Shown piece by piece: positions 6,087 to 47,603 of a stretch of 64,000 nucleotides of DNA (positions are counted from its first letter, which is position 1; each line of letters begins with the position of its first letter). The stretch spans positions 87,108 to 151,107 of the IMG/VR virus record IMGVR_UViG_3300042516_004811; one strand, 5' to 3'. The notes under the pieces are model-generated. The model worked only from the letters and a program-made list of their open reading frames with translations, was not told the DNA's origin and did no database searches. Made by a program: the position numbers and the translations under genes. Source of the stretch: a virus.

Positions 6087-6159
6087 GCGTCGGTGGCCAA
6101 ATGGATAAGGCAACAGACTTCTAATCTGTCGATTGCAGGTTCGAGTCCTGCCCGACGCG
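6087..6159 (+). tRNA. tRNA-Arg (anticodon TCT)
   Basis: Complete cloverleaf: acceptor GCGTCGG (6087-6093) pairs with CCGACGC (6152-6158), the anticodon stem ACAGA/TCTGT encloses loop C-T-TCT-A-A (anticodon 6120-6122), and the T arm GCAGG-TTCGAGT-CCTGC is standard. The 3' CCA is encoded (6160-6162). It reads AGA/AGG codons. Confidence 0.95.
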
Positions 6160-6197
6160 CCATTTTGACAGCGTGGGGTGCGTAGCCCAGCAGCAGG

Positions 6198-6278
6198 GGG
6201 CTAGTGGTGGAATGGCATACACGGAGGACTTAAAATCCTCTCCCGAAAGGGATGCGGGTTCAAATCCCGCCTAGCCCA
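6198..6278 (+). tRNA. tRNA-Leu (anticodon TAA)
   Basis: Acceptor GGGCTAG (6198-6204) pairs with CTAGCCC (6271-6277). Anticodon stem GAGGA/TCCTC encloses CT-TAA-AA (anticodon 6231-6233). A long variable arm (CCC-GAAA-GGG core) and a canonical T arm are present, as expected for leucine. CCA is not encoded. It reads TTA codons, which are rare in many actinobacteria. Confidence 0.95.
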
Positions 6279-6297
6279 CAAGGTAGTATTCAATCAT

Positions 6298-6370
6298 TGG
6301 CGAGTAGCTCAGTTGGCAGAGCGGAGGACTGTTAATCCTTTGGTCGCAGGTTCGAGCCCTGCCTCGCCAG
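6298..6370 (+). tRNA. tRNA-Asn (anticodon GTT)
   Basis: Acceptor TGGCGAG (6298-6304) pairs with CTCGCCA (6363-6369). Anticodon stem GAGGA/TCCTT encloses CT-GTT-AA (anticodon 6331-6333). The T arm is standard and CCA is encoded at 6371-6373. Third member of the tRNA cluster. Confidence 0.95.
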
Positions 6371-6393
6371 CCAAATAAATACCGTATAAGGTG

Positions 6394-6405
6394 TACAATG
6401 TTCGG
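6394..6405 (+). promoter_or_regulatory. Candidate -10 box for the gene at 6406
   Basis: TACAAT (6394-6399) lies 6 bases before the ATG at 6406, immediately after the tRNA-Asn gene. The closest purine-rich sequence (AAGG) is about 14 bases from the ATG, so leaderless translation is the simpler reading. No -35 match. Confidence 0.35.
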
Positions 6406-6768
6406 ATGGCTGAATTCGAACCAACAGAGAGACTTGGTGACTTTAAGGATATATTGTCCCGGTTCCAGTCTGGTTTTCCCGCAATAATAGATTGCGAGCA
6501 TGGGTGGAATGAAATTATCGCCAACTGCCATCAGGAGTTAAAAACAATAGATGACGAGTATACGATTGCCCAGATTAAAGAGAAATTTGGAACACTCAGG
6601 TATTACTTTTCTTCTAGTAACCCATCTCTTTACAAGCAGATGTGTGGGGTTGTTTCTAAATATGAAAAGATGTCTTCTTCGACATGCGAGCTCTGTGGTT
6701 CTCCTGGGGCAACCAGGAACTCTGGCTACATCAAGACGCTATGTAATGAGCACGCGAAAACTAATTAG
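6406..6768 (+). CDS. Phage protein with C-terminal CxxCGxPG zinc-ribbon motif, function unknown
   Basis: 120 residues from ATG at 6406 (a GTG at 6391 would add five). The central section carries Y-T-I-A-Q-I-K-E-K-F-G-T-L-R-Y-Y, and the C-terminus T-C-E-L-C-G-S-P-G-A-T-R then T-L-C-N-E-H, giving a probable four-ligand zinc site. I recall this I-K-E-K-F-G-x-L-R plus C-x-x-C-G-x-P-G combination from many uncharacterised phage and bacterial proteins; no activity is established as far as I know. Its stop overlaps the stop of the convergent gene by 4 bases. Confidence 0.8.
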   Translation: MAEFEPTERLGDFKDILSRFQSGFPAIIDCEHGWNEIIANCHQELKTIDDEYTIAQIKEKFGTLRYYFSSSNPSLYKQMCGVVSKYEKMSSSTCELCGSPGATRNSGYIKTLCNEHAKTN

Positions 6769-34585: not shown

Positions 34586-34647
34586 ATAACATACAGTAGC
34601 GCACAAAATTGCTCGCCGTGGCGGAAAGAGTGCAGGAAGAATTGATT

Positions 34648-39564: not shown

Positions 39565-39900
39565 ATGAGAACTACACCTATTAGCCAGATAGAAATTGAG
39601 CAGGAATTGATTCGACTGGTGAATAGATTAGAGAACGAGACGGAGCAGTTTGAAACAGTCGCCATGGATATGGCTAAAAAGGAAGCTCTTTATAAGTCTA
39701 ATTGGGCCAAAGAGTACATATCAGCAAAGGGCTCAATCAAAGAACGAGAAGCATGGGCAGACTACAAGCTTGACCAGCAGCTTTTCGAATACAAGTGCGC
39801 TGAGGCCCTAGTCAAAGCAAAGCGCGAAGTTCTTCTTTCAATCAGGTCATCAATTGATGCTATTCGCACACTTAATGCAAACGTTAGAACACAGGTCTGA
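39565..39900 (+). CDS. Small coiled-coil protein, function unknown
   Basis: 111 residues, nearly all helix. It starts I-E-I-E-Q-E-L-I-R-L-V-N-R-L-E-N-E, a heptad-like pattern, and continues through basic and acidic helices to the end. No catalytic residues. It stands between the RuvC-like gene and a ParB-like gene, with 10 and 1 bases of spacing, and has a GAGGA ribosome site. A structural partner for the resolvase or ParB protein is possible but only by position. Confidence 0.7.
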   Translation: MRTTPISQIEIEQELIRLVNRLENETEQFETVAMDMAKKEALYKSNWAKEYISAKGSIKEREAWADYKLDQQLFEYKCAEALVKAKREVLLSIRSSIDAIRTLNANVRTQV

Positions 39901-39901
39901 C

Positions 39902-40780
39902 ATGTCGAATGGAATACATGAGTCACTCAGCGAGCTTGCTGTAGACATAAATACTCTTTCACCACTAGACGGAAACCCGCGTCGTGGAAATGTTGAGGCA
40001 ATCATGGCCTCGTACCGTGAATTCGGACAAATTAAACCAATAGTTATTCGACCAAACTCGGATGGTACTGCAACCGTTATCGCTGGCAACCACCAGCTAG
40101 AGGCAGCAAAGAGACTTGGTTGGGACAAGATTGCTGCTGTCGCATACGACGTCGACGACAGAAAGGCAATTGCCTTCGCTCTTGCTGACAATAGGACAAT
40201 GGAGCTCGGATACACAGAGCCGGAACTTCTTGGGGAAGCGATACTGGAGTTGTCTGACTTTTACCCAGAACTCATGGAGGGTCTCGGTTGGGATGAGTTT
40301 GCTGCTGCGGAAATAGAGCAGAAGATAATCCGTCAGGATAATCAGATTGTTGAACCAGGCTCGGGATTCATGCCGCCAGTTATTGTTTCTAACGGAAGCA
40401 ATGGATTCGACAGGATAGACGATGATGATGAAGAAGAGTACGAAGATGCTCTATCGCCTCAAGGTTTAACAACACCAACACAGCCATCGCCGTCAATTGA
40501 CAGAAACGCAGTGTCAATCACTACGACGGAAGATGGACAACAGAGGATTAGCGCACGACCCGGTGTTGACCAGGATGATGCTGTGGTTAGGGGTTCAACA
40601 ACTGTTACACCAGGCTCTGCGCCTCAAGCGATAGTTCAGTACACGCTTGTTTTTGATAACCACGAGCAGCAGAGACGCTGGTACGACTTCATTAAGTGGC
40701 TCAGAAGTGACCCAGCAGTGGTTGGCGTAACAACCGCTGAAAGACTAATGGACTTCATCGGTCAACACACGGAAATATAA
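39902..40780 (+). CDS. ParB-like nuclease/NTPase-domain protein (first of two)
   Basis: 292 residues from ATG at 39902, one base after the previous stop. Residues 12-105 form the ParB/Srx fold: L-D-G-N-P-R-R-G-N, a Y-R-E-F-G-Q-I-K-P-I-V-I strand, and A-G-N-H-Q-L-E-A-A-K-R-L-G-W. The ADNRTMELG segment follows. After residue 130 there is a long Asp/Glu, Pro and Thr-rich linker and a small C-terminal domain (Y-T-L-V-F-D-N-H-E-Q-Q-R-R-W-Y-D-F). In phages, proteins of this kind act with modification or sulphur-transfer enzymes rather than in plasmid partition. The PAPS-reductase-like gene follows after a tiny ORF. Confidence 0.85.
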   Translation: MSNGIHESLSELAVDINTLSPLDGNPRRGNVEAIMASYREFGQIKPIVIRPNSDGTATVIAGNHQLEAAKRLGWDKIAAVAYDVDDRKAIAFALADNRTMELGYTEPELLGEAILELSDFYPELMEGLGWDEFAAAEIEQKIIRQDNQIVEPGSGFMPPVIVSNGSNGFDRIDDDDEEEYEDALSPQGLTTPTQPSPSIDRNAVSITTTEDGQQRISARPGVDQDDAVVRGSTTVTPGSAPQAIVQYTLVFDNHEQQRRWYDFIKWLRSDPAVVGVTTAERLMDFIGQHTEI

Positions 40781-40784
40781 CAGC

Positions 40785-40940
40785 ATGGATACTCCAGAAG
40801 AAAGAATCGAGAAACTAGAGAAGAACCTCGCTGAGGTTGAAGCTGACCGAGACTACTGGCGCTCAATGGCGGTTAGGGTTCTTCAAGAAATCAATGATGC
40901 TAAAGCGGAGATATTGAAACTATCGACCGGTAAACACTAA
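40785..40940 (+). CDS. 51-residue coiled-coil micro-protein
   Basis: ATG at 40785 to TAA at 40940. It is helical and charged (E-R-I-E-K-L-E-K-N-L-A-E-V-E-A-D-R-D), with a heptad-like spacing of I, L, L and V. It fills the gap between the ParB-like and PP-loop genes exactly: 4 bases after one stop, and its TAA shares a base with the following ATG (TAATG). This tight fit is the main evidence that it is real. Function unknown. Confidence 0.65.
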   Translation: MDTPEERIEKLEKNLAEVEADRDYWRSMAVRVLQEINDAKAEILKLSTGKH

Positions 40941-42085
40941 TGACAAGACAGAGACTCTTCCTTGATATGTCCTGTGTTGATGCAGCTCGTCAACGCATTA
41001 GGCACGTATACGACACATTTGATACTGTCTGCGTTCAATTTTCCGGAGGAAAGGACTCCACAGCTGTCCTCCTTCTTGCCAAGGAAGTCCACGAAGAACG
41101 AGGTCTTGGGCCTGTAAAAGTTATTTTCCGTGATGAGGAAATGGTTAGCCCAACTGTTGCTGCCTATGTTGAGAAGGTAAGAAATTACGACTGGGTTGAT
41201 ATGGAGTGGTATTGCCTGCCATACCCAGCCGAGATATGGGTTCTTGGTTACCGTTTAACCACAATCCTGTGGAGCCAGGAAAGATTTGAGCAGGACAGAT
41301 GGGTCAGGCCCATGCCACCCTGGGCCATTAGCGGCAAGAATTTTGGTCTTTCGCACAGTGTCTCCCTTCCAGAGCAGACCGACTATTACACAATGCAGGG
41401 AAAAAGAGGAAACGTGGCGTTCCTTACCGGCGTTAGGGCCAGTGAGTCAATGGTTCGTTATCGCTCAATAGTTCAGAAGCTTCACGAGAACTACATCAAT
41501 ACCCCATACAAACTGAAACGCGGTATCCCCCTTAAGTTTGCCAAGGTAATTTATGACTGGAATACAAATGATGTGTTCAAGTTCATTATTGAGGAGCATG
41601 GGGCTGAATACTGTGAATACTATGACCTTGCTGTAACTACGGGAAGTAATACTCGCGTGGGGATTCCACTCCACGCAACAGCCATTAGGAGAATCGGTGA
41701 CGTCATTGCAACTGAGCCAGAATTCTACGACAGACTATTTGAGTGTTTTCCATACATTGACGCACAGCGTCGCTTGTGGCCTGAATTTGATTCAGAAAAA
41801 CTGATTGATAAATATGCCAAAGATGGTTTTGACGGAGCTTCACGCTTTATTGACGAATACCTGATTGGCGATAGAAGAAAAACAGAAGCCAGGGCATATG
41901 TAAATAAGTTTCGTAAGAAGCATTTAACAGACCCGCATGGCTATCCTGTTAGTTGGTTAATCAGAAACTTGATGCTCAATGAGATTGACGTCAATTCACC
42001 AACCCCTGTTGGTCCCAAGACGAAAGCCTATGCTGTCAGGGCAATAGAGATGGAAAGGGCAGATGTTTATGAAGATGAAAATTGA
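40940..42085 (+). CDS. PAPS reductase-like PP-loop protein (IbrA/DndC-like)
   Basis: 381 residues. The ATP-pyrophosphatase loop is S35-G-G-K-D-S40, followed by I-F-R-D-E-E and later L-T-G-V-R-A-S-E-S, as in the phosphoadenylyl-sulphate reductase superfamily. Overall arrangement resembles the DUF3440/IbrA group, whose partner IbrB is a ParB-like protein; here ParB-like genes lie on both sides. Members activate a substrate by adenylation and often transfer sulphur; DndC in DNA phosphorothioation belongs to the same superfamily. No cysteine desulphurase gene is in the window. Substrate unknown; DNA modification is a hypothesis. Confidence 0.85.
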   Translation: MTRQRLFLDMSCVDAARQRIRHVYDTFDTVCVQFSGGKDSTAVLLLAKEVHEERGLGPVKVIFRDEEMVSPTVAAYVEKVRNYDWVDMEWYCLPYPAEIWVLGYRLTTILWSQERFEQDRWVRPMPPWAISGKNFGLSHSVSLPEQTDYYTMQGKRGNVAFLTGVRASESMVRYRSIVQKLHENYINTPYKLKRGIPLKFAKVIYDWNTNDVFKFIIEEHGAEYCEYYDLAVTTGSNTRVGIPLHATAIRRIGDVIATEPEFYDRLFECFPYIDAQRRLWPEFDSEKLIDKYAKDGFDGASRFIDEYLIGDRRKTEARAYVNKFRKKHLTDPHGYPVSWLIRNLMLNEIDVNSPTPVGPKTKAYAVRAIEMERADVYEDEN

Positions 42086-42626
42086 TTATGTTGACCCATC
42101 GGTACTGAGTGTTCCGGAATGGAGAGCTACATACACCGTTAGACCTGAAATGCTTGTGATTTCCGCCTCGCTCTCTCAGTTTGGATTTATTGAACCGATT
42201 CACGTTCGCCTATCAACTGGTGAAATAATCAACGGCTCAGAGAGATACTTACTGGCAACCAGTATTCCGGCAATCCTGGCCCATACTGATGGAAAAATAC
42301 CAGTTGTATTTCATGATGTTGACAAAATCGACGCAATGATGCTGCATCTCCGCCTCAATAGGGGTCATTCTCATGTGATTGCGGCCAAAACTTCTGAAAT
42401 AATTCGTTCGGTTCGTCGTTCCGGCAAATACGGGGCAGCCGATTTTGAAGACATGCTCTGCATGAGGTCAGAAGAATTATCGCTAATGCTTGACGGAAGC
42501 CTATTCAAGGTTAGAAAAATCAAGGAGCACAACTATGCAAGAGCATGGGTTCCGATTGAGGCTCCGCCCGGCTATAAAGACCAGGAATCAATGGTTATAG
42601 AAAGACCACCAAATCCTGACAGATAA
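42069..42626 (+). CDS. ParB-like protein (second of two, IbrB-like)
   Basis: 185 residues from ATG at 42069, 9 bases after GGAAAGGG; a further ATG at 42063 is possible. It overlaps the PP-loop gene by 17 bases. The N-terminal domain has A-S-L-S-Q-F-G-F-I-E-P-I-H-V-R, then I-I-N-G-S-E-R-Y-L-L-A-T and the L-H-L-R-L-N-R-G-H-S-H motif, typical of the ParB/sulfiredoxin fold. It is only 20-25% alike by eye to the first ParB-like protein, so this is not a recent duplication. Likely co-acts with the PP-loop protein. Confidence 0.8.
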   Translation: MKMKIDYVDPSVLSVPEWRATYTVRPEMLVISASLSQFGFIEPIHVRLSTGEIINGSERYLLATSIPAILAHTDGKIPVVFHDVDKIDAMMLHLRLNRGHSHVIAAKTSEIIRSVRRSGKYGAADFEDMLCMRSEELSLMLDGSLFKVRKIKEHNYARAWVPIEAPPGYKDQESMVIERPPNPDR

Positions 42627-42672: not shown

Positions 42673-43389
42673 ATGCCAGGAGTACGTTACGGTCCTGATA
42701 TTTCTGATGACGCTGCATTCGTCGTGGATAGGGTCAAGGAGCTTCAGGCTGTCCTGCGTCGCGGCGGAAGACTCAATAAGCGCCAGACAACCCAGTATGA
42801 GAGCTTTGCAACTTACGCTAGGGACCTATTTGGTGTGGGTCGCGACCGTTTTGACAGGGGTCAGCTTGGTGAGTTGGGTGAAATGGCTAGATACGGCGGC
42901 TCTAAATCACGCAGTAAACTAGCTAGAAGCTGGCGAACTGGTGGAGACATGAAAAAGTCGGTTGCGCAGGAATTTGCTGACCGTGGTGGCGGAGTGAGAA
43001 GGGCTGGTAGCGCCAAAACCCCACAAGGTGCATGGTACGCAGGCAGAACGAGACCAAAGAAATTCCGCGACCTGGAGGCCAGGGCTCAAAGGCGAGCAAA
43101 TCGCAATGGTGTTAAATTTGGGAAAGTCTCTATTGCTAAAGGCTCGGTTAAGCCCAACACGTTCTTGGCCCAGACGGATAAACTAAATGTCGCCAAGGTT
43201 GGTGCTGGGGCTAGCGACATAGCCAACAGACCGCGTGGCGTCACGACAGTAAGAAAGACCGGAGCCTCAATTAGGCCAGCACTTCCAAAATCACAGGCTC
43301 GTGCTCAACAGAGAGCAAGGAAGAGGGCTGTTGCTGGCGCAACCAGGGACCTTACGAATAAGGGCAGAACTGGCGGCAGGCGCAGGTAG
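42673..43389 (+). CDS. Highly basic phage protein, function unknown
   Basis: 238 residues with an excellent ribosome site (AGAGGAGA). R and K make up about a quarter, with many glycines; the C-terminal 130 residues are largely disordered in character (AQQRARKRAVAG, NKGRTGGRRR). The first 75 residues are more ordered and helical (VVDRVKELQAVLRRGGRL). A TCTGG/CCAGA pairing in the leader could partly cover the ribosome site. Located between the ParB-like gene and the tail connectors, followed by a terminator. Nucleic-acid binding is likely from charge alone; it could be packaged. Confidence 0.7.
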   Translation: MPGVRYGPDISDDAAFVVDRVKELQAVLRRGGRLNKRQTTQYESFATYARDLFGVGRDRFDRGQLGELGEMARYGGSKSRSKLARSWRTGGDMKKSVAQEFADRGGGVRRAGSAKTPQGAWYAGRTRPKKFRDLEARAQRRANRNGVKFGKVSIAKGSVKPNTFLAQTDKLNVAKVGAGASDIANRPRGVTTVRKTGASIRPALPKSQARAQQRARKRAVAGATRDLTNKGRTGGRRR

Positions 43390-43402: not shown

Positions 43403-43429
43403 TTAACTAGATTTCGCTAGTTAATTTTT
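43403..43429 (+). terminator. Intrinsic terminator between convergent genes
   Basis: TTAACTAG (43403-43410) pairs with CTAGTTAA (43417-43424) around a 6-base loop and is followed by TTTTT. It ends the plus-strand transcript of the basic protein and overlaps the 3' end of the minus-strand gene at 43407. Confidence 0.8.
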
Positions 43430-43808
43430 CGTCGTGCCTTCCAAAACCGGAATCTGGACCAACGTCCTCAAGATAATCCTCGTAGAAGATGTGGTCATCT
43501 TCTCCGATATCTTCATTGATTAGGAATTCTTTTACTGAAGCACATGGCTCAAGGGCGGCAATAATCCTGCCCCTATCGTCCTTGCCTATAAATGAAATTC
43601 CCGCTGCTGCCAGTGCTGAACTAGTTACGTCCCAGAGGTAATTGGAGAACTCATCCATGGCCCCCTCGTCATCAAGTTCTTCTTGGTCTTCTTCAAAGTA
43701 AAAGAAAAGAACTTTCATAATTTTCTCACCCACAGCCACAGCAGCAGCTCGACGCTCACTCTCGGTGCCAAAATACTGAGAAACGACAACTTCTTGATTC
43801 TTGTTCAT
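43407..43808 (-). CDS. Acidic paralogue A, function unknown
   Basis: 133 residues, strongly acidic (notably FEEDQEELDDEGAMDEF and the C-terminal EDDHIFYEDYLEDVG). Residues 15-100 align along their whole length with the 101-residue neighbour: the shared pattern is F-x2-F-x2-D/E, an acidic loop, F-x2-x-L-x-D-V/I, A-x-A-G-I/M-x-F/V-I-G, D-G/R-x-I-x-A and A-S-V/M-x-D/E-F. It has an extra acidic C-terminal tail. Its own promoter ends 6 bases before the ATG. Small acidic proteins of phages often mimic DNA to block host enzymes; that is a hypothesis only. Confidence 0.8.
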   Translation of the reverse strand: MNKNQEVVVSQYFGTESERRAAAVAVGEKIMKVLFFYFEEDQEELDDEGAMDEFSNYLWDVTSSALAAAGISFIGKDDRGRIIAALEPCASVKEFLINEDIGEDDHIFYEDYLEDVGPDSGFGRHDEKLTSEI

Positions 43809-43814
43809 AGACAG

Positions 43815-43843
43815 AATCTATCTTTCAAAAATGCCAAGCGCAA
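43815..43843 (-). promoter_or_regulatory. Leaderless promoter of acidic paralogue A
   Basis: On the minus strand TTGCGC (43843-43838), a 17-base spacer and TAGATT (43820-43815), then 6 bases to the ATG at 43808. The -10 hexamer and the 6-base gap are identical to those of the paralogue's promoter. No Shine-Dalgarno sequence can fit in the gap. Confidence 0.7.
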
Positions 43844-43848
43844 TAGCA

Positions 43849-44154
43849 TCAAGAGATGTTGTACTTATTAGCAAAATCAGACATCGATGCCATGGGGTTA
43901 AATTTGGCAACTATCTTGCCATCGCTATTTTCCCCAATTACTTCCATTCCAGCTACTGCCATTACGAGACAGGCAATATCTGTCAGGGAATCAACAAACC
44001 CATTGAACTCGTCGTCATCACCCAAGCCATCTTCAGTATCTGCAAAAAATGCGAACAGTATCTGAACTATGTGGTCAGTGATTTCCGTGTTTGCCCCAAT
44101 GCGCTCCTGTTCGCTAAAAAACTTAACTGGCTCAAATATTGAAGCGTTTCCCAT
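43849..44154 (-). CDS. Acidic paralogue B, function unknown
   Basis: 101 residues, net acidic (ADTEDGLGDDDEF). It is homologous to the gene at 43407-43808 over most of its length, without the acidic tail, so the pair arose by tandem duplication and then diverged considerably. No membrane segment, cysteine cluster or enzyme motif. The two genes stand alone on the minus strand between plus-strand replication and tail blocks, each with its own promoter, the usual look of a moron or early takeover gene. Confidence 0.8.
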   Translation of the reverse strand: MGNASIFEPVKFFSEQERIGANTEITDHIVQILFAFFADTEDGLGDDDEFNGFVDSLTDIACLVMAVAGMEVIGENSDGKIVAKFNPMASMSDFANKYNIS

Positions 44155-44160
44155 TCCACG

Positions 44161-44189
44161 AATCTACATCACTTAAAGCATTCAGTCAA
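44161..44189 (-). promoter_or_regulatory. Leaderless promoter of acidic paralogue B
   Basis: On the minus strand TTGACT (44189-44184), a 17-base spacer, and TAGATT (44166-44161), then CGTGGA and the ATG at 44154. This is the closest match to a sigma-70-type consensus in the window and predicts transcription starting at or next to the start codon. Confidence 0.75.
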
Positions 44190-44264
44190 TGGAATTCACG
44201 GCCCATATCGCTTAAAGGTGTTAAAATTTAGAACACAGATTTTTCTATCTCTTGACGAGGTGTC

Positions 44265-44912
44265 ATGATTGTTTCACTTTCAGAAATCAGAAACTATATG
44301 GACATCTCGTTCACTCAGCGGCAGGAAGATGCCGCAACACTTGTTCTTGCCGGACTTCAGAGTGAGCTTGAGGCATTCCTGCGTAGACCAATAGAGCCGA
44401 CTCAGTTTGTTGAGCAGTACAGGCTTGATGCAATGCATACCGGTGTTCCGATGGGGACATTTCTTACGGCAAATGACAATGTTTATAACGAATCATTCAC
44501 AACATCTAGCCCAAGACAGAACGCCACTCAGTATGCGGACCCACCACCAGCTATCTACTTCAAGAACACCCCGATTGTGGAAATTGAAGAAATAAGGGTT
44601 AAGCCGCTGTTTGGTAGCGAAAGAGTTCTTGAAAATGAGCTGGACTACGTACAGCGGCCGTACGGTATCGACTACTACTACGGCTACGCAGATGACCTAC
44701 TGACCATGACCTACACTGCCGGCCTTGATGGCGCAAGTATCCCAGTACTTAAGCTCCTCATACTCCGTGCCGCATCACGAGAAATGCAGAATATGCATGA
44801 CGATGTTGTCGGTGTCAAAGACCTGAACACCAGAAACACTGGACCATTGGTTACGGGTTTTCTGGAAACCGAACTTTCATCAGTGCGTAAATACCGCAGG
44901 GTGCGTGTTTAG
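44265..44912 (+). CDS. Head-tail connector (adaptor) protein
   Basis: 215 residues. N-terminal helices (L-S-E-I-R-N-Y-M-D-I and Q-E-D-A-A-T-L-V-L-A-G-L-Q-S-E-L-E-A-F-L-R-R-P-I) match the start of HK97 gp6/SPP1 gp15-like adaptors, followed by a beta-rich insert with I-Y-F-K-N-T-P-I-V-E-I-E-E-I and a closing helical part (L-L-I-L-R-A-A-S-R-E-M). The adaptor ring joins portal to the tail. A GAGGTG ribosome site is present. First gene of the tail block, divergent from the acidic pair. Confidence 0.8.
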   Translation: MIVSLSEIRNYMDISFTQRQEDAATLVLAGLQSELEAFLRRPIEPTQFVEQYRLDAMHTGVPMGTFLTANDNVYNESFTTSSPRQNATQYADPPPAIYFKNTPIVEIEEIRVKPLFGSERVLENELDYVQRPYGIDYYYGYADDLLTMTYTAGLDGASIPVLKLLILRAASREMQNMHDDVVGVKDLNTRNTGPLVTGFLETELSSVRKYRRVRV

Positions 44913-46136: not shown

Positions 46137-47603
46137 ATGCCTGGCTTAGTCATTTCAACTTCAGTGAGAACCGGCCCATCATCAGCGACGGTTCGCGAAT
46201 CTTCACAGCTATTTGTCGTCGGCCAGGCCGAGCGCGGCCCATCCGATGAACCAGTCGTGGTTGAGAGCCTGGCAGAGTTTGAGTCGATTTTTGGTGGGTA
46301 TATTTCAGGTTCTTATCTGCATCCAACAATTGAGACATTCTTTGAAGAGGGTGGAACACGCGCCTACATCGGTAGAACCGTTGGTAGTGCTGCTGCAATT
46401 GGTGAACTCACACTTCAGTCAGCAAGCGCAGTTGACGTTCTGACCCTCACCGCCAATGGTGCTGGAGACTGGTCAGACAACCTGGAAGTTGAAGTTACTC
46501 AGCCAACACCTGGCTCAACATTTAAGGTCAACTTCTATTACGACTCAGCTCTTGTTTACTCAACAGGAACAGTAACATCAGCGACTCAGGCAGCTGGCAG
46601 AATCAACTCTTCAGCTATTGCGACTCAGTATGCATCTGCAACTGTCGAGGACGACACCCTCATTCCGGCAGTCCTGGCTGCAGAAAACGGTGCATTCTCT
46701 GGCGGAGATTCCAACACAGCCGGAATTAACGATGCTAGCTACGTAGCAAGCCTTGAGTTGTTCAACGATGCTCTTGGCTCTGGTGCGGTAACATGCCCAG
46801 AGAGCTCAGCTACCGAGGTTGTTCAGGGACTGGTTGCCCATGCCAACACATACAGCAGAATTGCTCTACTGTTTGGCGGAGAAACCAACAGCGTTGCAAC
46901 AATCAAGCAGGCCGCTCTTGACGTACAGACAGAAAACCACGCCGAGCACGCCGCTTACTACTACCCATGGGTTGAAGTGCCAACAGGAACTCCTGGCGTA
47001 ACACGCTTCATTCCACCAGTTGGATATGTTGCCGGCAAGCGTGCCCTTGCTCACAATCAGACAGGACCACATCTTCCTGCGGCTGGCCTCCTCTCGGTTG
47101 CTCGCTTCGTAGTTGGGCTCAAGTCCAGCATCAATAAGACCGTTGGTGATGACCTTGACGAGAACTACGTGAATGCTCTGAGGGTTATTCAAAACACCAT
47201 ACGAATTTATGGTGCGCGCTCATGCTCTTCAGATACTGACAACTTCCGCTATATCACACAGCAGGATGTTGTTAACTCAATCGTGACGGAGTGCTACCGC
47301 TCAATCGAAGATGTCGTCTTCAGTGCAATCGACGGAAGAAACACAATTTTCGCGAACGTCGAATCACGACTACTTTCAATTCTTTCCGTCATGCGCAACA
47401 TTGGCGCTCTGTACCCAGCCTTTGACGCCAATGGCCGTCAGCTTGACCAGGGATACACCGTACGATGCGATGCTTCGCTCAACCCCGCCTCTCAGCTAGC
47501 GACCGGCTTGGTCAAGGCTACTGTCGGTGTTCGAGTGAGCAGCGTTGGCGACAAGATTGAAATCGAAATCGTCAAGTCCAACCTAACCTCATCAGTGGTT
47601 TAA
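46137..47603 (+). CDS. Tail sheath protein
   Basis: 488 residues. The N-terminus P-G-L-V-I-S-T-S-V-R-T-G-P with V-G-Q-A-E-R-G-P-S-D-E-P-V-V-V and E-F-E-S-I-F-G-G-Y is characteristic of contractile sheath proteins. A variable central domain (about 95-200) follows. The conserved C-terminal domain includes N-A-L-R-V-I-Q-N-T-I-R-I-Y-G-A-R and a final strand D-K-I-E-I-E-I-V-K-S-N. Presence of a sheath makes this phage a myovirus. A GAGGT ribosome site precedes the ATG. Tail tube gene follows 16 bases later. Confidence 0.93.
   Translation: MPGLVISTSVRTGPSSATVRESSQLFVVGQAERGPSDEPVVVESLAEFESIFGGYISGSYLHPTIETFFEEGGTRAYIGRTVGSAAAIGELTLQSASAVDVLTLTANGAGDWSDNLEVEVTQPTPGSTFKVNFYYDSALVYSTGTVTSATQAAGRINSSAIATQYASATVEDDTLIPAVLAAENGAFSGGDSNTAGINDASYVASLELFNDALGSGAVTCPESSATEVVQGLVAHANTYSRIALLFGGETNSVATIKQAALDVQTENHAEHAAYYYPWVEVPTGTPGVTRFIPPVGYVAGKRALAHNQTGPHLPAAGLLSVARFVVGLKSSINKTVGDDLDENYVNALRVIQNTIRIYGARSCSSDTDNFRYITQQDVVNSIVTECYRSIEDVVFSAIDGRNTIFANVESRLLSILSVMRNIGALYPAFDANGRQLDQGYTVRCDASLNPASQLATGLVKATVGVRVSSVGDKIEIEIVKSNLTSSVV

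What the first reader, a model, noticed from the sequence alone, without database searches (positions are those of the whole stretch)
43407..44189. Tandem acidic paralogues, each with the same leaderless promoter, in reverse orientation
Seen: two homologous acidic proteins on the minus strand amid plus-strand genes; both have TAGATT exactly 6 bases before ATG and a -35 (TTGACT or TTGCGC) at 17 bases. They look like independently expressed early genes, duplicated and diverged. Inference: host-takeover or anti-defence factors, possibly DNA mimics.
Basis: partly seen in the sequence, partly recalled or inferred. Interest (0 to 1): 0.72.

Follow-up and report, generated by a model that had tools for sequence, protein, structure and literature searches.

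The report
Reverse-oriented acidic gene pair in phage
A group of phages, probably of water-dwelling actinobacteria, carries a small self-contained gene unit, backwards among its structural genes and with its own host-type promoter, that makes one or two undescribed acidic proteins; it is probably an accessory unit acting on the host cell, but what it does is not shown.

Summary
Two minus-strand genes (A 43407-43808, 133 aa; B 43849-44154, 101 aa) are acidic paralogues (31% identity, E 1e-15), each with TAGATT exactly 6 nt before ATG and a -35 at 17 nt. They sit between a basic plus-strand gene (M) and the head-to-tail adaptor gene (N) of a 151-kb contractile-tail phage record whose cultured relatives infect Actinobacteria. 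Homologues in IMG/VR form a new family (no Pfam, PHROG or PDB match), always at this site and reversed. All 22 starts tested have TANNNT 6-7 nt upstream; 14 have TTGAC[C/T] at exactly 17 nt. A/B arose by one ancient duplication, after which B lost an acidic C-terminal tail. A's own promoter exists only in the window's lineage; in other two-copy phages A overlaps B as an operon. The family maps as one gain or loss on the N tree, under purifying selection. AlphaFold gives a confident alpha+beta fold with no solved match found. Best reading: a moron-like accessory unit transcribed by host sigma-A, leaderless, whose protein acts on a host target. Early timing and target are inferred. The DNA-mimic reading is not supported: charge is moderate and lies partly in a tail that B lacks.

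The parts
43407..43808 (-). Gene A: 133 aa acidic protein (pI 4.11, net -21), long form with acidic C-terminal tail; kept ancestral form of the duplication
   Evidence: ORF; family; charge; tree; pN/pS 0.16/0.79 against L007
43849..44154 (-). Gene B: 101 aa acidic paralogue (pI 4.05, net -13), short form without the tail; promoter-proximal
   Evidence: ORF; paralogy; tree; charge
43815..43843 (-). Gene A promoter: TTGCGC-N17-TAGATT, 6 nt before ATG (leaderless); shared only with sister phage L007/L017
44161..44189 (-). Gene B promoter: TTGACT-N17-TAGATT, 6 nt before ATG (leaderless); -10 position conserved in the whole family
44219..44229 (+). Extended -10 element TGTTAAAATTT, probable separate promoter of the adaptor gene N, divergent from B's promoter
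   Evidence: conserved in most loci with the module; TGCTACAAT at the equivalent place in many loci without it; inference
43405..43429 (+). Possible weak terminator hairpin AACTAG-ATTTCG-CTAGTT-AATTTTT between convergent M and A; holds A's stop codon
   Evidence: sequence; only 2 G-C pairs, not called by the terminator scan
42673..43389 (+). Flanking gene M: basic 238 aa protein of unknown function (MPGVRYGPD... N-terminus conserved)
   Evidence: no PHROG match
44265..44912 (+). Flanking gene N: head-to-tail adaptor
   Evidence: tblastn to Gordonia phage adaptor proteins, E about 1e-6

Best explanation
A and B form a self-contained, moron-like transcription unit lying backwards at the boundary between two structural operons. 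Host RNA polymerase with the housekeeping sigma factor reads a leaderless promoter (TTGAC-N17-TANNNT-N6/7-start) without needing phage factors, so the proteins can be made from the start of infection and independently of the late genes. The unit encodes an undescribed small acidic alpha+beta protein (two long helices, a beta-hairpin, a short helix, and in the long form an acidic tail with an [FY]ED motif). It most likely is not a virion part but acts in the host cytosol, binding a host protein (defence, transcription or replication machinery) through the conserved acidic loop and, in A, the tail. One tandem duplication gave B, which lost the tail, and A, which kept it. Shown here: anatomy, paralogy, family, conserved site, promoter conservation, selection, predicted fold. 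Inferred: host sigma-A use, early timing, non-virion location, host-protein target.
For: Reverse orientation at one fixed site in every family member found, whether found by the adaptor gene or by the family itself; no second site in the 151-170 kb records searched. TANNNT 6-7 nt before the start in 22 of 22 starts, exact 17-nt spacer in all 14 TTGAC members. TANNNT is the preferred -10 of SigA and about a quarter of transcripts are leaderless in Mycobacterium smegmatis (PMC6448022). N has its own, different promoter-like element, so the unit sits between operons. An antisense position among lytic genes with an own promoter is described as characteristic of moron loci (PMC7067206). Closest cultured matches of the tail sheath and adaptor are mainly actinobacterial phages. 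Purifying selection. One gain or loss on the adaptor tree; one broken copy, L039. Confident model, pLDDT 89.
Against: No transcript or protein data; early timing rests on promoter type alone. Stable vertical inheritance at one site is unlike typical mobile morons and would also fit a role tied to its structural neighbours. Members of the L028/L030/L037/L040 group lack a recognisable -35. No tyrosine integrase was found, so a lysogenic role cannot be leaned on. No homologue of known function exists in the libraries searched.
Confidence: 0.45

Rival explanations
1. Assembly partner: the acidic protein is a chaperone or regulator for the adjacent, strongly basic protein M or for the neck, and its fixed place next to M and N reflects that.
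For: Absolute linkage to M and N over wide divergence; M is rich in K/R while the family is acidic; vertical inheritance.
Against: M is basic also in phages that lack the family, where M and N lie directly adjacent; opposite strand and a separate host-type promoter are odd for a late assembly factor; a broken copy exists.
Confidence: 0.2
2. Lysogeny or pseudolysogeny accessory gene, for example superinfection exclusion, expressed constitutively from the host promoter.
For: Independent promoter antisense to lytic genes is typical of prophage accessory loci (PMC7067206); a ParA/MinD-type ATPase-like protein and a Cro/C1-type HTH protein lie in the genome; a dispersed operator-like array resembles stoperators.
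Against: No tyrosine integrase in the 151-kb record; the family was not found in bacterial genomes (close relatives only). Serine integrases and plasmid-type replication were not searched.
Confidence: 0.15
3. DNA mimic of the Ocr/ArdA type that blocks restriction or another DNA-binding defence.
For: All 25 members acidic, pI 4.05-4.67; conserved acidic cluster around A residues 40-53 and 104-119.
Against: No fold similarity to a solved structure among the chains compared; core net charge only -4 to -14 and partly tail-borne, with the tail lost in all B copies. Ocr carries 34 acidic and 6 basic residues in 116 (PMC4872106).
Confidence: 0.12
4. Spurious ORFs or chance promoter matches.
For: The promoter motif is no more frequent in the window than chance predicts.
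Against: pN far below pS in every pair tested; family and promoter position conserved across divergent phages.
Confidence: 0.01

Closest known systems
Phage morons (e.g. STMMW_20121 of ST64B, antisense to lytic genes with own promoter, PMC7067206)
   Same: Small gene unit on the opposite strand among lytic/structural genes, own promoter, present in one group of related phages and absent in another, not matched to virion families
   Different: Leaderless actinobacterial-type promoter; stably inherited at one site as a single gain or loss; no clear terminator; phage not shown to be temperate
DNA mimics Ocr (T7) and ArdA
   Same: Small acidic phage or mobile-element protein from a unit that could be expressed early
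   Different: Different predicted architecture (two helices plus beta-hairpin), lower charge, tail-borne acidity lost in one paralogue, no sequence or fold match found
Leaderless SigA-type promoters of Actinobacteria (M. smegmatis, PMC6448022)
   Same: TANNNT -10 placed so that transcription would start at or next to the start codon
   Different: Here with a consensus-like -35 at an invariant 17-nt spacing in most members; found in a phage, start sites not mapped
BFVD models A0A6J5MHA4 and A0A6J5NHT1 (uncultured Caudovirales phage, 88-91 aa)
   Same: Best structural matches by probability, 0.95 and 0.80, similar length to B
   Different: E-values 0.1 and 0.51, 11-15% identity; uncharacterised; relationship unproven

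Membership tests
Phage moron | Own promoter, independent of neighbouring operons | tested here: met
   Conserved promoter at B/single-copy starts, 22/22 TANNNT at 6-7 nt; sequence evidence only
Phage moron | Present in some and absent from related phages at the same site | tested here: met
   Absent with M and N adjacent in a sister clade; one gain or loss on the N tree
Phage moron | Own transcription terminator | tested here: inconclusive
   Only a weak hairpin at 43405-43429; not called by the scan
Phage moron | Not needed for the lytic cycle | not testable with these tools
   One broken copy (L039, 80-nt deletion) hints at dispensability but may be an assembly error
DNA mimic (Ocr/ArdA) | Fold shared with a known DNA mimic | tested here: inconclusive
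   No mimic among Foldseek or VIA-align matches; absence is not proof
DNA mimic (Ocr/ArdA) | Very high conserved acidic charge on the folded domain | tested here: not met
   Core net charge -4 to -14 over 90-103 aa, not conserved; Ocr 34 acidic, 6 basic in 116 (PMC4872106)
DNA mimic (Ocr/ArdA) | Blocks a DNA-binding host enzyme | not testable with these tools
   Needs binding or restriction assays
Leaderless SigA-type gene | TANNNT placed 6-7 nt before the start codon | tested here: met
   22 of 22 family starts against 4 of 48 other window genes
Leaderless SigA-type gene | Mapped transcript start at the start codon | not testable with these tools
   No transcriptome available

The most novel reading that the evidence does not exclude
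A previously undescribed fold and protein family that actinobacterial phages deploy immediately after injection from a host-read leaderless promoter to disable a host defence or housekeeping protein, with the two paralogues (tailed A, tailless B) specialised for different targets or as a modulator pair.
Probability: 0.2. Interest if true: 0.65.

Novelty: new member of a known kind. Interest (0 to 1): 0.38.

Why it matters
It defines a new protein family with a confident model for which no solved match was found, tied to a promoter so well conserved that it may mark host-read genes in uncultured, probably freshwater actinophages. If the early, host-directed role holds, the promoter signature plus reverse orientation gives a simple rule for picking host-interaction genes from metagenomic phages of this group. 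If it does not, an acidic factor fixed beside a basic head/neck protein would be an unusual reverse-coded assembly factor.

Tried and rejected
Known families: no Pfam or PHROG match for the six members scanned, no PDB sequence match, no INPHARED phage match by tblastn, no relative in GTDB genomes (close relatives only). Fold search of both models: PDB best Foldseek E 0.65-0.8 and Z at most 5.0, common helical arrangements. An alignment-based collection scan could not run for lack of conserved stretches, so scans used single proteins. Toxin-antitoxin pair: rejected because the two genes are paralogues and most relatives carry one gene. Correlation between the basic tail of M and presence of the family: M is basic in both groups. 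Host identification through the ribonucleotide reductase found nothing. A motif-count argument for the promoter was dropped because raw counts equal chance. A first spaced-pattern search used a wrong spacer and is not used.

Full report
What is there. The window is bases 87108-151107 of a 151,107-base IMG/VR virus record. Its structural genes run on the plus strand from the terminase large subunit at 34609 to about 62954, through the contractile tail sheath at 46137-47603. Between gene M (42673-43389, a basic protein of unknown function) and gene N (44265-44912, head-to-tail adaptor by homology to Gordonia phages) lie two minus-strand ORFs: A (43407-43808, 133 aa) and B (43849-44154, 101 aa). 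They are paralogues: 31% identity over 83 residues, E 1e-15.

Is it more than chance? Raw motif counts are not enriched: TTGAC-N18-TANNNT occurs once in the window (2.1 expected), and that one match is B's promoter; the whole record has two. The argument is conservation. I collected 80 IMG/VR loci around N and further loci with the proteins themselves. An iterated profile search gave 27 distinct members, every one between M and N where both are held, and on the strand opposite to them; loci found with the family proteins have the same neighbours. Of 22 starts examined, all 22 have TANNNT six or seven bases before the start codon, against 4 of 48 other window genes, and 14 have TTGAC[C/T] at exactly 17 bases. 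These sequences are related, so this is conservation rather than 22 independent trials. Coding is real: pN is 0.04-0.26 where pS is 0.17-0.86.

History. A tree of 25 members puts all five short B-type copies in one clade (99/99), and the A copies of the same phages together in another: one tandem duplication, after which B lost the acidic C-terminal tail that A and all single-copy members keep. In L011, L024 and L025 gene A overlaps the end of B and shares its transcript; only the window lineage and L007/L017 give A its own promoter. On the tree of N, presence of the family needs a single change, so it has been inherited vertically at a fixed place, with one copy (L039) truncated by an 80-base deletion. 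Where it is absent, M and N lie 14-90 bases apart in most loci. Records searched whole show no copy elsewhere.

Promoter context. N has its own probable promoter, an extended -10 element (TGTTAAAAT) without a -35, conserved in most loci with the unit; many loci without it show TGCTACAAT at the equivalent place. The unit therefore sits in a boundary between two transcription units, with a promoter of a different class. In Mycobacterium smegmatis TANNNT is the preferred -10 of the housekeeping sigma factor and about a quarter of transcripts are leaderless (PMC6448022). The best cultured relatives of the sheath and adaptor are mainly phages of Gordonia, Brevibacterium and Arthrobacter, so an actinobacterial host is likely; the host itself was not identified, and a freshwater source is a guess from the group's known ecology. 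From this I infer transcription by unmodified host polymerase, hence possible expression from the start of infection. No timing data exist.

The proteins. All members are acidic (pI 4.05-4.67). The long forms carry net -17 to -24, but much of it lies in the tail; the folded core has -4 to -14. Conserved acidic columns fall in the helix 1-helix 2 loop (A residues 40-53) and, in the long forms, around the [FY]ED motif of the tail. AlphaFold models of A and B are confident (pLDDT 89 and 88): two long helices, a beta-hairpin and a short helix. Neither sequence nor fold gave a match to anything characterised; two uncharacterised phage proteins in BFVD are weak candidates.

Interpretation. Best reading: a moron-like, independently expressed accessory unit acting in the host cell, probably by protein binding. 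The main rival, an assembly partner of the basic neighbour M, gains from the fixed site but loses from the opposite strand, the separate promoter and the fact that M is also basic where the unit is absent. A lysogeny role cannot be excluded although no tyrosine integrase was found. Surface electrostatics could not be computed from the models with the tools at hand.

Verdict. Real, conserved and, as far as the libraries searched show, undescribed as a protein family, but of a known kind (accessory unit with its own promoter). Function remains inference.

Noticed in passing
Own genome G000 about 20-62 kb (loci L120-L122), outside the window: 67 copies of GTAGATAAGT (about 0 expected; none in the window), mostly between genes; 12 lie exactly 16 nt before a TANNNT box, often as GTAGATAAGTCTGAACC-N8-TACTGT. 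Looks like a promoter plus dispersed operator (stoperator-like) array; 44 copies of the 11-mer GTAGATAAGTC in relative L020's record but none in five others.
   Followed up: partly
window 6394-6408 (+): A further leaderless-looking gene (TACAAT-N6-ATG) directly after the tRNA-Arg/Leu/Asn cluster at 6087-6373.
   Followed up: no
L036:4875-4920 (-), also L042, L047: GGTCAA-N7-TTGACC inverted repeat overlapping the -35 of the family promoter in one subgroup, a possible operator.
   Followed up: no
window 42673-43389 (+): Gene M: conserved N-terminus MPG[VL]RYGPDI[TS]DDA and a very basic C-terminus that is histone-like (AKKAAK repeats) in many relatives; no PHROG match.
   Followed up: partly
L022, L030, L036, L037, L040, L042, L070 family proteins: C-terminal short motif [IMV]D[LW][GA]x[FW]xx[LIV]F at the end of the acidic tail in one-copy members, absent from the window proteins; may be a binding motif.
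   Followed up: no
window 39854-40780 and 42063-42626 (+): Two ParB-like proteins among the structural-side genes, flanking a phosphoadenosine phosphosulfate reductase-like gene at 40940-42085.
   Followed up: no
L039:4654-4875 (-): Family gene truncated by an 80-nt deletion relative to L042; possible natural loss or assembly error.
   Followed up: partly
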